A DNA stretch of 64,000 bases from Faecalibacterium prausnitzii (GTDB taxonomy: Bacteria; Bacillota; Clostridia; Oscillospirales; Ruminococcaceae). The stretch spans positions 1 through 64,000 of the forward strand of contig NZ_PXUP01000017.1 of assembly GCF_003324185.1 (NCBI RefSeq), given 5' to 3'. Positions 47,159-51,631 of this stretch are shown in pieces (the stretch's first letter is position 1; every line of letters begins with the position of its first letter). The notes under the pieces are model-generated. The model was not told the DNA's origin and searched no databases. It saw nothing but the letters and a program-made list of their open reading frames with translations. Position numbers and translations under genes: made by a program.

Positions 47159-47560
47159 TTACCCTGCGTCTGTGATGGGCTCTACCACCACATACACCTC
47201 TGCGGGCACACAGGCGGCCCATGCGCCGTCCTTGTCCAGCCAGCCGAATTGCTCACAGACATGGTCCGGGCACTGGCTGTCCAAAAACGCGATGGCACCA
47301 TCCTTCACCTGCAGGTGCACGATGTAGTCCCCTACCTCGTACAGGTAATCGTGATCCTGCGCAAGGGGCAAAGTCTCGGTAACGCCGTCACCGAAATCCA
47401 CAACAGCCTGTAAGCCGCTGCCCTTGGCGGGGTGCTGCGCCCGCACCGCAAGAAAAATACCTGCGGCCAGTGCCAGCACCACCAGTGCAAAGATCACATT
47501 TTTCTTCCACGCGCTGCCCTTGGGGGCGGCGGTGTCAGAGTTTTTTGGCTTTATGCTCAT
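47159..47560 (-). CDS. NusG domain II-containing membrane protein
   Basis: 133 residues. One membrane helix (about 22-41) is followed by an exported NusG-II-type domain with CPDHVCEQFGWLDKDGAW and CVPAEVYVVVE. The pattern of Cys and Trp is typical of this family. Despite its name the family is not a transcription factor when membrane-bound. Its ATG overlaps the reductase stop as ATGA, so it is probably a partner of that flavoprotein, perhaps in flavin or electron delivery. Confidence 0.82.
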   Translation of the reverse strand: MSIKPKNSDTAAPKGSAWKKNVIFALVVLALAAGIFLAVRAQHPAKGSGLQAVVDFGDGVTETLPLAQDHDYLYEVGDYIVHLQVKDGAIAFLDSQCPDHVCEQFGWLDKDGAWAACVPAEVYVVVEPITDAG

Positions 47561-49473
47561 GCAGCGTACTTGCTGGCAGCTGCACCGGCAATGCGGCCAA
47601 AGACGGTAAAGTCGGCCACAGCGTTGCCGCCCAGACGGTTTGCACCGTGCACGCCGCCGGTCACCTCACCTGCTGCGAACAGGCCGGGGATCACAGAGCC
47701 GTCAGCCTTCAGCACCTCGGTGTTGGTGTTGATCTTCAGGCCGCCCATGGTGTGGTGCACACCTGCGGTGACCTTGATAGCATAGTAGGGAGCGGTATCC
47801 AGAGCCTTTGCAAAGCTGGTACGGCCAAAGTCGGGGTCGTTCTTGGCGGCAACGTAGCCGTTCCAGGTCTTCATGGTCTCGGCAAAAGCAGCCTCGTCCA
47901 CGCCCATAGCCTTTGCCAGTTCCTCGTAGGTCTGGCCGGTCACGGTGTAGCCCTTCTTGATGTAGCCCTGAATGACGCTGGAGGCATCGACCATAGCCTG
48001 ATCCACCACCAGCCAGCTGTAGCTGCCGGTCTGAGCGATCTCAGCGGCAGAAACCACGTCACGGGTGCCCACTTCGTCGATGAAGCGCTTGCCCTCGGCG
48101 TTGATCAGCACAGCGCCGTCGCCGCGCAGACCCTCGGTGATCAGAGCAGCGGTGTTAGCCTCCACGGTGGGGTGGATCTGGATCTGATCCATGTCCACAG
48201 TGTCAGCGCCCACAGCGGTAGCCATCTCAATGCCCTGACCCTGTGCGCCTGCGGCGTTGGTGGTCATAAAGCCCTTCAGCTCGGGCTTGTACTCGGTGAC
48301 CATGTCCAGATTTGCGCCGAAGCCGCCGGTGGTCAGCACCACAGCCTTGGCATTCACGGTGATGGTCTCGCCGGTGGAACCGGTAGCCTTCACGCCCACA
48401 ACAGCGCCGTTTGCATCGGTCAGCAGCTCGGTAGCGGTGGTGTTCAGCAGGGTCTGCACGCCGGCCTTGTCGCAGTTCTCCTGCAGCAGGGGGATCATGT
48501 AGGAGCCCACAGAAAGGGTCTTGCCCTCAGCATCCACGGGGCGATGGATACGCTTGACGGATGCGCCGCCGAAGCTGGAAACGCTGTGCAGGGTGATGCC
48601 GTGCTCGTCCAGCCAGTCGATGGCGTCAGCGCTGTTAGAGCACAGAGTCTCCACCAGAGCGGGGTCGTTGATGCCCTTGCCGCCGATCATGGTGTCCAGC
48701 TCCATCAGCTCCACAGAGTCGAAGTAGCCCTTGGGGTCTGCCTGATAAGCTGCCCACTGCTCAGAGACGGTCTTAGCCAGAGCGGTGATGGTAGCGTTGT
48801 CAGCGTACTTTTCAGCAGCGGTCTTCAGGGTCTTTTCCACGCCTGCGGACTCGCCGAACTCGTTCTCATCCTGATACACGGTCTTGCCGGCGTTCATGCC
48901 GCCGGTAGCGCGCACGGAGTTGCCGCCCACCATGGGCTGGCTCTCCAGAATGACCACGCTCTTGCCCTCGGCAGCAGCCGTGATGGCAGCAGTCATACCT
49001 GCACCGCCTGCACCCACGATGGCAATGTCTGCATCAATGGTGGAGTCCTCGGCCTTGTTTTCCTCGGCCTTGACCTCGGTCTTGTAGTCGTCAGCGTTCA
49101 GGCCGGCTGCGACCAGAGCGGCAGCAGCAGCTTCCTTGATGGCGTCGGAGGTGATAGTTGCAGTGGCCACGCCGTCCACGGCAATGCTGCCGCTCTCGGC
49201 AATCGCGCCGGGCAGCTGCTCCAGAGCCATGGTGCCGATGCCGGGGGTCTCATCCTTGCCCTCGGCGGTACAGCCGGTGATCTTGCCGTCGGTCAAAGTC
49301 AGAGTGACGGTAACATCGCCGCCCATGCCCTTGGCCGTACCGGTGAACTCGCCGGACACGCCTGCGGTGGAGGAGGCAGACTTGCTGCCGCAGCCGTAGC
49401 CCAGCAGGCTGACGCTTACAACAGCCGCCATGGCCAGCGCAGCCACGCTCTTGCGGATCTGATTCTTTTTCAT
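47557..49473 (-). CDS. Exported FMN-binding FAD-dependent reductase (fumarate/urocanate reductase type)
   Basis: 638 residues. Signal peptide with lipobox-like GYGC (C28). Residues about 35-125 are an FMN-bind domain; the covalent-FMN Thr is probably T106, in DGVATATITS. The family's usual SGAT is ATAT here. The rest is a flavocytochrome-c-like FAD domain: GAGGAGM at 154-160, GGNSVRATGGMNA, TEGLRGDGAVLIN and GVHHTMGGLKI, which hold the FAD and substrate-binding residues. It should reduce an enoate such as fumarate or a related acceptor outside the cell. ATG 49473 starts the signal peptide. Confidence 0.88.
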   Translation of the reverse strand: MKKNQIRKSVAALAMAAVVSVSLLGYGCGSKSASSTAGVSGEFTGTAKGMGGDVTVTLTLTDGKITGCTAEGKDETPGIGTMALEQLPGAIAESGSIAVDGVATATITSDAIKEAAAAALVAAGLNADDYKTEVKAEENKAEDSTIDADIAIVGAGGAGMTAAITAAAEGKSVVILESQPMVGGNSVRATGGMNAGKTVYQDENEFGESAGVEKTLKTAAEKYADNATITALAKTVSEQWAAYQADPKGYFDSVELMELDTMIGGKGINDPALVETLCSNSADAIDWLDEHGITLHSVSSFGGASVKRIHRPVDAEGKTLSVGSYMIPLLQENCDKAGVQTLLNTTATELLTDANGAVVGVKATGSTGETITVNAKAVVLTTGGFGANLDMVTEYKPELKGFMTTNAAGAQGQGIEMATAVGADTVDMDQIQIHPTVEANTAALITEGLRGDGAVLINAEGKRFIDEVGTRDVVSAAEIAQTGSYSWLVVDQAMVDASSVIQGYIKKGYTVTGQTYEELAKAMGVDEAAFAETMKTWNGYVAAKNDPDFGRTSFAKALDTAPYYAIKVTAGVHHTMGGLKINTNTEVLKADGSVIPGLFAAGEVTGGVHGANRLGGNAVADFTVFGRIAGAAASKYAA

Positions 49474-49521
49474 TGTTTCATCCTTCTTATTTTGGGTTGC
49501 TTGTGTTCGGATATCTATCAG

Positions 49522-49563
49522 CAAAAAAAGGGGAGCTGCTCATTCGGAAAGCAGCTCCCCCTC
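49522..49563 (-). terminator. Terminator of the GGGtGRT operon
   Basis: GGGGAGCTGC (49530-49539) pairs with GCAGCTCCCC (49551-49560). The minus strand exits through T7. Confidence 0.85.
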
Positions 49564-49582: not shown

Positions 49583-50581
49583 TTAGGCGTTGGCCTGAGC
49601 TGCAGCAACAGCGCAGGCAACGGTAGCGCCGACCATGGGGTTGTTGCCCATGCCGATCAGACCCATCATCTCAACGTGTGCGGGCACAGAAGAGGAGCCT
49701 GCGAACTGAGCATCGCCGTGCACGCGGCCCAGAGAGTCGGTCAGGCCGTAGCTTGCGGGGCCTGCAGCCACGTTATCGGGGTGCAGGGTACGGCCGGTGC
49801 CGCCGCCGGAAGCAACGGAGAAGTACTTCTTGCCGTTCTCGATAGCCCACTTCTTGTAGGTACCGGCAACCAGATGCTGGAAGCGGACGGGGTTGGTGGA
49901 GTTGCCGGTGATGGAGCACTGCACGTCCTCCTTCTTCATGATGGCAACGCCTTCCATAACGTCGTTAGCGCCGTAGCACTTAACGGCTGCGCGCTCACCC
50001 TCGGAGAAGGGGATCTCCTTGACCACAGTCAGGGTCTGGGTGGGGATATCGTACTCGGTCTGCACATAGGTGAAGCCGTTGATACGGGAAATGATGTAAG
50101 CTGCGTCCTTGCCCAGGCCGTTCAGGATGACGCGCAGGGGGGTCTTGCGGACCTTGTTTGCAGTGCGGGCGATGCCGATAGCACCCTCAGCAGCAGCAAA
50201 GGACTCGTGGCCTGCCAGGAAAGCGAAGCAGGTGGTGTCCTCGCTCAGCAGACGAGCGCCCAGGTTGCCGTGACCCAGACCGACCTGACGCTGCTCAGCA
50301 ACAGAGCCGGGGATGGTGAAAGCTTCCAGACCCTCACCGATAGCAGCTGCGCACTCGGCAGCGTCGGTCAGGCCGCGCTTCACAGCGATAGCGGTGCCCA
50401 GAGTGTAAGCCCAGACAGCGTTATCAAAGCAGATGGGCTGCACGCCGCGGACGATCTTGTCGCAGTCGATGCCCTTAGCGAGGAGCATCTCGTTGCAAGC
50501 GTCCAGAGACTCCAGACCGTTAGCCTTCAGGCATGCCTCGATTTTAGGCATACGGCGATCCATAGATTCAAAAGTTGCCAT
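49583..50581 (-). CDS. GGGtGRT protein (function unknown)
   Basis: 332 residues. The naming motif GGGTGRT is at 259-265. Other conserved-looking blocks are GLGHGNLGAR (101-110), FLAGHESFAAAEGA with H125, and NGLGKDAAYIIS. Eight cysteines occur (17, 29, 40, 51, 77, 118, 202, 222). No known enzyme fold is evident to me. The family is always described by its motif and is found next to an IscU-like protein, as here. The ATG lies 18 bases after the stop of that partner. The pair may build or use a metal or Fe-S centre; this is inference. Confidence 0.85.
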   Translation of the reverse strand: MATFESMDRRMPKIEACLKANGLESLDACNEMLLAKGIDCDKIVRGVQPICFDNAVWAYTLGTAIAVKRGLTDAAECAAAIGEGLEAFTIPGSVAEQRQVGLGHGNLGARLLSEDTTCFAFLAGHESFAAAEGAIGIARTANKVRKTPLRVILNGLGKDAAYIISRINGFTYVQTEYDIPTQTLTVVKEIPFSEGERAAVKCYGANDVMEGVAIMKKEDVQCSITGNSTNPVRFQHLVAGTYKKWAIENGKKYFSVASGGGTGRTLHPDNVAAGPASYGLTDSLGRVHGDAQFAGSSSVPAHVEMMGLIGMGNNPMVGATVACAVAAAQANA

Positions 50582-50599
50582 TGAGTTGTTCCTCCTCTC

Positions 50600-51301
50600 T
50601 TATTCCTCACGCGGGTCGATGTACTTCACAGCGCCCTGCTCCTTGCTGAAGCGGCCGTAAGTACCCACGTTCTTCTCGTAAGCCTCGTTGGGGGTCTTGC
50701 CGTGACGGATATCCTCCATCATCTTGCCCAGCTTAACGAACTGATAGCCGATGACCTCATCGTTAGCGTCCACTGCCAGCTTGTTGATGTAGCCCTCGGT
50801 CAGCTCCAGATAGCGCACGCCCTTCTCCTTGGTGGAGAAGATGGTGCCGGTCATGGAGCGCAGACCCTTGCCCAGGTCGTCCAGACCTGCGCCGATGGGC
50901 AGACCGTCCTCAGAGAAAGCGGTCTGGCTGCGACCGTAGACGATCTGCAGGAACAGCTCGCGCATAGCCACGTTGATAGCGTCGCACACCAGGTCGGTGT
51001 TCAGAGCTTCCAGAATGGTCTTGCCGGGCAGGATCTCGCCTGCCATAGCAGCAGAGTGGGTCATGCCGGAGCAGCCGATGGTCTCCACCAGAGCCTCTTC
51101 GATGACGCCGTTCTTGATGTTCAGGGACAGCTTGCAGGTGCCCTGCTGGGGTGCACACCAGCCCACACCATGGGTGTAGCCGCTGATGTCCTTGATCTCA
51201 TAGGCCTTGACCCATGCGCCCTCTTCGGGGATGGGAGCCGGACCATGCTTAGGACCTTTGGTGATCGGGCACATATTCTGTACTTGCTGCGAATAGGTCA
51301 T
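50600..51301 (-). CDS. IscU/NifU-like iron-sulfur scaffold-type protein
   Basis: 233 residues. The core resembles IscU: C56 in GTCKLSLNI, C77 in TIGCSGMTHSAAMAGE and C106 in NTDLVCDAIN, with GKTILEAL between the last two. Additional cysteines are C11 and C49. The C-terminal third (about 150-233) is an extension not found in IscU and ends in KYIDPREE. ATG 51301 is chosen because GGAG lies 9 bases upstream, whereas ATG 51307 is only 3 bases away. No sufS or sufB is nearby, so this is a specialised scaffold rather than the housekeeping one. It is paired with the GGGtGRT gene. Confidence 0.8.
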   Translation of the reverse strand: MTYSQQVQNMCPITKGPKHGPAPIPEEGAWVKAYEIKDISGYTHGVGWCAPQQGTCKLSLNIKNGVIEEALVETIGCSGMTHSAAMAGEILPGKTILEALNTDLVCDAINVAMRELFLQIVYGRSQTAFSEDGLPIGAGLDDLGKGLRSMTGTIFSTKEKGVRYLELTEGYINKLAVDANDEVIGYQFVKLGKMMEDIRHGKTPNEAYEKNVGTYGRFSKEQGAVKYIDPREE

Positions 51302-51631
51302 AATCATACTCTCCTTTTGACAAAATGTCGCTTTGGCAGCATAAAACCGCCGCCGCGCCCTGCCGGCACAGCTGCTGCTCCATACTGCTTGCATCCGAAC
51401 CGGGTGCGCTGCTCTCTTTCAGCGCCTGCACCGGTACTACCACGCATGATTTTATTATAGAGAAAACGGACGAATTTTGCAAGTCATTTCCTGCAAAAAG
51501 TACAGCCGGGTTTTACGGTCATCCGGCGCTAACTGTCATTTCCACCGCTTTATACAAATCAGTCGTCAAGTTTTTGTCAATTCTGCCGTAAGCACCGGCA
51601 AACTTTTTATAGTCTTTTCTTTTTGCGCGTT

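What the first reader, a model, noticed from the sequence alone, without database searches (positions are those of the whole stretch)
49583..51301. GGGtGRT protein with an IscU-like partner: undescribed metallo-system candidate
The pair is compact, has its own terminator and lies beside an exported reductase. The scaffold keeps three IscU-type cysteines and has a unique C-terminal extension; the GGGtGRT protein has eight cysteines and a glycine-rich motif of unknown use. A dedicated scaffold with one client suggests a special Fe-S or metal enzyme not yet described.
Basis: partly seen in the sequence, partly recalled or inferred. Interest (0 to 1): 0.62.

Follow-up and report, generated by a model that had tools for sequence, protein, structure and literature searches.

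The report
Iron-responsive GGGtGRT and IscU-like pair
Two neighbouring genes in a Faecalibacterium gut bacterium make a protein of unknown function and a relative of the cell's iron-sulfur cluster builder; the two almost never occur apart in the genomes examined and other studies show that they follow iron supply, so they probably act together in an iron-dependent job that has not been identified.

Summary
The pair is real: GGGtGRT (PF14057, 49583-50581 -) and, 18 bp upstream, a divergent IscU-fold protein (50600-51301 -), with a terminator. In 196 genomes of the class each gene is in 91; 90 share both, and by eye 89 of those have them adjacent. Bacteroidota, Actinomycetota and Vibrio loci keep the order. 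The genome also has an ordinary NifS-NifU, so this is a second protein. Published tables show both proteins higher with iron in Clostridium and Bacteroides. The scaffold has three invariant cysteines (C49, C77, C106) and H44; the first is not at IscU's C37 position, and LPPVK is absent in 92 of 92 rows. Most likely: a two-subunit iron-sulfur enzyme or complex whose cluster stays on the IscU-derived subunit. Rivals: dedicated cofactor delivery to GGGtGRT, an iron-sulfur store, a biogenesis helper. Metal content and function are untested.

The parts
49583..50581 (-). GGGtGRT protein gene, 332 aa; six invariant His (H104, H125, H236, H267, H288, H302), nine Cys of which none is invariant
   Evidence: PF14057 E 3.1e-184; invariance in 96 rows, 93 distinct; Cys/His positions
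50600..51301 (-). divergent IscU/NifU-fold protein, 233 aa; invariant H44, C49, C77, C106 (C56 in 90 of 92 rows); extra C-terminal part of about 108 residues
49787..49807 (-). codons of the invariant GGGTGRT loop (residues 259-265), at the edge of the least confident stretch of the model
   Evidence: sequence; invariant; pLDDT under 50 at 260-276
49527..49563 (-). intrinsic terminator-like hairpin, 15 pairs, followed by a T run, closing the unit (pattern match)
51454..51482 (-). sigma-70-like promoter TTGCAA-17-TATAAT upstream of the pair (consensus match only)
49583..49675 (-). last 30 codons of GGGtGRT (V303 to end) plus stop; the corresponding stretch is duplicated downstream in five other genomes by inserted elements

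Best explanation
A two-subunit iron-sulfur enzyme or redox complex. The smaller protein is an IscU-derived subunit that keeps the IscU fold and three invariant cysteines but has lost the C37 position and the LPPVK motif and has an added C-terminal part; it holds the cluster itself instead of handing it on. GGGtGRT, with a Rossmann-like core and six invariant histidines but no invariant cysteine, binds the substrate and supplies acid-base or metal-binding histidines at the interface. Cells make both when iron is plentiful and less when it is scarce. Shown: the two genes, their near-perfect co-occurrence and adjacency, the predicted IscU fold, residue conservation, and (by others) the iron response. 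Inferred: physical complex, a bound cluster, catalysis.
For: 90 genomes have both genes, 1 only the scaffold (G205, fragment, genome 85% complete), 1 only GGGtGRT (G346, fragment at a contig start, genome 83% complete), of 196; by reading the two lists, 89 of 90 are on one contig and strand next to each other (G336 with a gap of about 0.8 kb), and G319 is split over contig ends. Scaffold directly upstream on the same strand in 93 of 95 sequences with a GGGtGRT match, the two others having no upstream DNA. Same order in Vibrio, Persicobacter, Parabacteroides, Collinsella, Bacteroides. No other gene is regularly beside them. No invariant Cys in GGGtGRT, six invariant His. Separate NifS-NifU in the genome; 14 of 91 GGGtGRT genomes have no NifU_N hit better than 1e-6, some of them incomplete genomes, yet keep the pair. 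Iron response: GGGtGRT 7.1-fold (early) and 2.2-fold (late) higher at Fe+, partner 2.4 and 3.7-fold early in C. pasteurianum; BT0173-74 down 12.8 to 11-fold on depletion.
Against: No cluster, metal, complex or activity has been measured. Three invariant Cys, not four, leave an open site as in true scaffolds (C56 is missing in 2 of 92 rows; H44 could be the fourth ligand or not). Two GGGtGRT cysteines are nearly invariant (C118 93 of 96, C202 89 of 96), so most members could use them. The scaffold model is weak (pLDDT 68, pTM 0.48). GGGtGRT has no convincing solved relative (no Foldseek hit at E <= 1e-3; VIA Z <= 8.9). No recurring pathway gene points to a substrate. In the paper with the Bacteroides result the word GGGtGRT does not occur for the two other species tested (one occurrence in all).
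Confidence: 0.4

Rival explanations
1. Dedicated scaffold and single client: the IscU-like protein builds an unusual iron-sulfur or other metal cofactor and delivers it to GGGtGRT, which binds it through histidines and acidic residues, in most members perhaps also C118 and C202.
For: IscU fold and three invariant Cys; strict pairing; all six GGGtGRT histidines invariant, C118 in 93 and C202 in 89 of 96 rows; a second, ordinary NifU in the same genome.
Against: No invariant Cys in the client; LPPVK is absent in 92 of 92 rows and present in 13 of 16 canonical sequences; IscU's C37 position is Gln.
Confidence: 0.27
2. Iron-sulfur store or buffer: the pair takes up surplus iron and sulfide when iron is plentiful.
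For: Both rise strongly with iron in two phyla; GGGtGRT is reported as highly expressed in chicken caecum; a ferritin hit of E <= about 1e-15 (my own cut, chosen after seeing the list) is in 32 of 91 GGGtGRT-positive against 56 of 105 negative genomes, odds ratio 0.47, p 0.014, not corrected for kinship.
Against: The window genome itself has a ferritin; at E <= 0.001 the ferritin profile hits 187 of 196 genomes and tells nothing; 119 of 332 positions invariant in 96 rows suggests catalysis; iron-rich expression is also shown by ordinary iron enzymes in the same table.
Confidence: 0.15
3. Auxiliary iron-sulfur biogenesis or repair system serving many clients, with GGGtGRT as sulfur or electron donor.
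For: In Collinsella the pair lies just downstream of sufB-sufD-sufS-sufU; in Parabacteroides beside OsmC, TlpA and a ferredoxin-nitroreductase.
Against: These neighbours are not among the gene families that recur in the Clostridia loci; no association with SufB/D (38 of 91 against 38 of 105, p 0.46) or with canonical NifU (77 of 91 against 96 of 105, p 0.18).
Confidence: 0.12

Closest known systems
GGGtGRT protein family, Pfam PF14057
   Same: Whole-length match, E 3.1e-184; a member, not a new family
   Different: Sequence searches find no solved relative and the papers found hold no study of its function; the invariant histidines and the fixed partner are what this report adds
IscU/NifU-type scaffold (PF01592; human ISCU, A. 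fulgidus IscU, clostridial NifU)
   Same: Predicted fold of residues 40-125; C77 aligns with IscU's C63; a cysteine, C106, at the start of the last helix
   Different: Below the Pfam cut-off (18.5 against 22 bits) and far below the NCBIfam cut-offs; C37 position is Gln53, with C49 and C56 on either side; no LPPVK; about 108 extra C-terminal residues; fixed partner
HydF or NifEN-type dedicated cofactor scaffolds (recalled, not compared)
   Same: Idea of a special assembly protein for one client
   Different: No sequence relation tested; no maturase gene is among the recurring neighbours

Membership tests
PF14057 GGGtGRT | Full-length profile match above cut-off | tested here: met
   611.8 bits against 27, positions 1-326 of 327
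PF14057 GGGtGRT | Conserved GGGTGRT loop | tested here: met
   Residues 259-265 invariant in 96 rows
IscU/NifU scaffold family (PF01592) | Profile match above curated cut-off | tested here: not met
   18.5 bits against 22; 19.2 in the genome search, where the canonical NifU scores 163.7
IscU/NifU scaffold family (PF01592) | IscU fold | tested here: met
   Foldseek E 1.8e-4, prob 1.00; VIA Z 9.2, rmsd 2.2, 86 aligned to 8rmc_D; the model is of moderate to low confidence
IscU/NifU scaffold family (PF01592) | Cys at IscU C37 with Asp39 (positions recalled) | tested here: not met
   hhalign aligns NPKCGD of L109 with APQQGT; C49 lies four residues before Gln53 (the 16 canonical sequences were picked by a CGD motif out of 26 loci)
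IscU/NifU scaffold family (PF01592) | Cys at IscU C63 | tested here: met
   C77 in IGC aligned with FGC, in 92 of 92 rows
IscU/NifU scaffold family (PF01592) | Cys at IscU C106 | tested here: inconclusive
   hhalign stops at residue 102; VIA end points put C106 at or one residue from it, if the last helix is ungapped
IscU/NifU scaffold family (PF01592) | LPPVK motif for the HscA-type chaperone (role recalled) | tested here: not met
   0 of 92 rows; 13 of 16 canonical sequences have it
IscU/NifU scaffold family (PF01592) | Assembles and transfers an iron-sulfur cluster | not testable with these tools
   Needs anaerobic biochemistry
FtsZ/tubulin GTPases | Homology beyond the GGGTG loop | tested here: not met
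   hhalign score 20.9, probability 0.8%; column-shuffled controls reach 26.1 in 40 runs
Dinucleotide-binding Rossmann enzymes | Rossmann fold with GxGxxA/G turn | tested here: inconclusive
   GLGKDA (155-160) lies at a strand-helix turn; VIA Z up to 8.9 with many unrelated Rossmann-like chains

The most novel reading that the evidence does not exclude
An IscU scaffold was turned into the permanent cluster-bearing subunit of a new iron-sulfur enzyme: the cluster on the IscU-like protein and the histidine-rich, nucleotide- or phosphate-binding GGGtGRT protein form one active site between them, a widespread enzyme of gut anaerobes, also found in Vibrio and Persicobacter, whose reaction is unknown.
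Probability: 0.3. Interest if true: 0.82.

Novelty: new variant of a known kind. Interest (0 to 1): 0.55.

Why it matters
Nearly half of the class genomes sampled (91 of 196) carry this pair, and several metaproteome papers list it, yet no function was found in the held papers. If the IscU-like protein is a permanent catalytic subunit, a scaffold fold has been reused as an enzyme part, and an iron-dependent activity of gut bacteria is missing from metabolic maps. The pair is simple to test because it is only two genes.

Tried and rejected
Obligatory cysteine-ligated metal site in GGGtGRT: rejected, no invariant Cys, though C118 and C202 are in 93 and 89 of 96 rows. Four invariant Cys in the scaffold (my reading): withdrawn, C56 is Ala in Vibrio and Val in L010. 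Internal duplication of the scaffold's NifU-like half in its C-terminus: not supported, hhalign score 13.1 against shuffled mean 11.1, maximum 19.4 of 60. Kinship of GGGtGRT with FtsZ, suggested by the top VIA row and the GGGTG loop: not supported; a second loop, GMGNNPMVG, resembles FtsZ's GAGANPEIG but in reverse order and within noise. Link with the flanking reductase, NusG_II protein or MFS transporter: in the 99 records, reductase and NusG_II relatives lie only in the window's genus, an MFS relative also in L020; against this stands a different FAD_binding_2 flavoprotein 0.5 kb downstream in Collinsella. Replacement of SUF or of NifU: no association. FeFe hydrogenase profile uninformative, 186 of 196. 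Fur-like and one IscR-like pattern upstream: 2 and 0 of 83, shuffled means 0.6 and 0.2 (the patterns are recalled); only -10-like words and a strong ribosome site stand out. Rfam at gathering scores: two tRNAs in the window, nothing at the pair. PADLOC: no match. PDB sequence searches: best E for GGGtGRT 0.23 and 0.042, taken as chance. No solved fold was listed for residues 1-111 of GGGtGRT, a part which the VIA list barely tests. The neighbours of the pair in Vibrio and Persicobacter that Pfam names (biopterin hydroxylase, cupin, lycopene cyclase, chloride channel, histidine kinase, RimK) suggested no shared pathway. PF14057 as a search word gave Plasmodium and other papers that look unrelated from the listing. 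PMC7671984 (passages) gave nothing on the pair.

Full report
What is there. On the minus strand lie two ORFs, 50600-51301 (233 aa) and 49583-50581 (332 aa), 18 bp apart, in this order of transcription. A sigma-70-like site lies upstream (51482-51454, 10 of 12) and a 15-pair terminator-like hairpin downstream (49563-49527) (consensus scans only). The window most likely belongs to a Faecalibacterium: the closest named record in the scan is Faecalibacterium sp. I4-1-79, 100% at the GGGtGRT protein.

The second protein is PF14057 from end to end (E 3.1e-184). The first scores only 18.5 bits against the NifU_N cut-off of 22, but its predicted fold is IscU: Foldseek's best rows are human ISCU (E 1.8e-4), VIA gives Z 9.2, rmsd 2.2, 86 aligned residues to 8rmc_D, and hhalign against 16 canonical NifU sequences (picked by a CGD motif from 26 loci) gives 95.4%. 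The model is of moderate to low confidence (pLDDT 68, pTM 0.48). About 108 residues follow the aligned part.

A two-gene unit. In 95 sequences with a GGGtGRT match, the IscU-like gene is directly upstream on the same strand in 93; the other two (L013, L014) begin inside the gene (WIN and L001 are both the window). Beyond the pair, the families found in six or more of the 99 records were an ABC protein in 13 (3 of them within 400 bp), an integrase and a SecA-like protein in 6 each, and an antisense ORF of the pair itself (names other than integrase are recalled from the sequences); many flanks are short. In an even sample of 196 genomes of the class, GGGtGRT is in 91 and the scaffold, searched with alignment A3 at E 1e-15, in 91: 90 shared, one each way unshared, both fragments in incomplete genomes (G205 85%, G346 83%). 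Read by eye from the two lists, 89 of the 90 have the genes next to each other on one contig; G319 has pieces on two contigs. In the phylum sample 10 of 199 genomes, the window's own included, have PF14057. Outside the phylum, the pair stands in the same order in Collinsella (Actinomycetota), Parabacteroides, Bacteroides and Persicobacter (Bacteroidota) and Vibrio (Gammaproteobacteria); in Parabacteroides a 63-aa ORF lies between. Of fourteen control genomes one rings, Bacteroides ihuae.

Not the housekeeping scaffold. The genome has an ordinary NifU with a cysteine desulfurase-like ORF next to it on another contig (the desulfurase is my reading of the sequence) and no SufB/D match at E 0.001. 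Fourteen of 91 GGGtGRT-positive genomes, some incomplete, have no NifU_N hit better than 1e-6. There is no association with SufB/D (p 0.46) or canonical NifU (p 0.18); a ferritin hit of E <= about 1e-15 is somewhat rarer in positives (32 of 91 against 56 of 105, p 0.014), with a cut chosen afterwards and no correction for kinship.

Residues. In 96 GGGtGRT rows (93 distinct; lowest identity to the window 63%) 119 positions are invariant, among them all six histidines of the protein and the GGGTGRT loop; none of its nine cysteines is, but C118 is in 93 and C202 in 89 rows. In 92 scaffold rows (90 distinct) H44, C49, C77 and C106 are invariant, C56 is in 90. C77 is IscU's C63; at IscU's C37 the scaffold has Gln53; C106 lies at or beside IscU's C106 at the start of the last helix (end points only). 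LPPVK is in 13 of 16 canonical sequences and in 0 of 92 scaffold rows.

Fold of GGGtGRT. The AlphaFold model is good (pLDDT 84.7, pTM 0.85) except the loop 260-276. No solved chain matches at E 1e-3; VIA lists many Rossmann-like chains over residues 112-320, best Z 8.9, with ties. A GLGKDA turn (155-160) would suit a dinucleotide or phosphate ligand; this is a lead only. Kinship with FtsZ was tested and not supported.

Published data. In Clostridium pasteurianum 2-D gels (PMC5395762, section with Table 2 read) GGGtGRT (F502_05012) is 7.1-fold higher with iron in the early phase, the highest early Fe+ value that I find in that table as printed in plain text, and 2.2-fold late; the NifU-related protein with the next tag (F502_05017) is 2.4 and 3.7-fold higher early, 1.6 and 2.9 late. 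In Bacteroides thetaiotaomicron (PMC10434189, passages) BT0173-74 fall 12.8 to 11-fold on iron depletion, P 0; the word GGGtGRT occurs only there, so nothing is said for the two other species. PMC11204068 (passages) reports high expression in vivo and calls the protein poorly characterised. PMC12014591 (passage) lists both proteins with consecutive locus tags. PMC7035244, PMC9942572, PMC13041051, PMC12101220 and PMC12643325 (passages) name it; the first and third also name a NifU protein. Searches for GGGtGRT, BT0173, NifU phrases and PF14057 listed no study of its function; most subscription papers are not in the library.

Mechanism. I favour a two-subunit iron-sulfur enzyme with the cluster kept on the IscU-derived subunit (0.4), because the partner offers no invariant cysteine, the pairing is fixed, features of IscU tied to transfer are altered, and expression follows iron. 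Delivery of a special cofactor to GGGtGRT (0.27), storage (0.15) and a helper of iron-sulfur biogenesis (0.12) remain open. None of the chemical steps is shown.

A side finding. The last 30 or so codons of the GGGtGRT gene look like an attachment site: in five genomes (L136-L139, and L140 with L141) a second copy beginning within residues 301-304 lies downstream on the same strand at 1.8 to about 49 kb; a sixth genome (G370) has such a piece on another contig. A tyrosine integrase follows the gene directly in L137, L138, L011 and L013; the ORFs tested in L136 and L141 are not integrases, and L139 and L140 were not tested.

Noticed in passing
L136-L141, L011, L013; window equivalent 49583-49675: The 3' end of the GGGtGRT gene looks like a recurrent integration site: five genomes carry a downstream duplicate starting within residues 301-304 and ending at or past the stop, and tyrosine integrases (PF00589) sit right behind the gene in four loci. 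Viral contigs L015-L018 and phage records H14-H16 carry only the end part of the gene at a record edge.
   Followed up: partly
L138 515-3606: The 15-kb element behind the GGGtGRT gene of G216 carries a Schlafen/AlbA_2 protein and a TIR/SEFIR protein, which recalls mobile defence islands.
   Followed up: no
window 47159-49524: An FMN_bind plus FAD_binding_2 reductase (TIGR01813 flavocytochrome c subfamily), with a lipoprotein-like start by eye, is followed by a NusG_II protein; relatives lie beside the pair only in Faecalibacterium among the 99 records compared.
   Followed up: partly
L145 1-9024: In Collinsella aerofaciens the pair lies about 1.9 kb downstream of sufB-sufD-sufS-sufU, with a transposase between, and an FAD_binding_2/Succ_DH_flav_C flavoprotein follows 0.5 kb further on.
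   Followed up: no
G238 C4 and C66: One genome of the class sample carries two complete copies of the pair.
   Followed up: no
L144 5800-5991: A 63-aa ORF without a Pfam family above cut-off lies between the scaffold and GGGtGRT in Parabacteroides.
   Followed up: no
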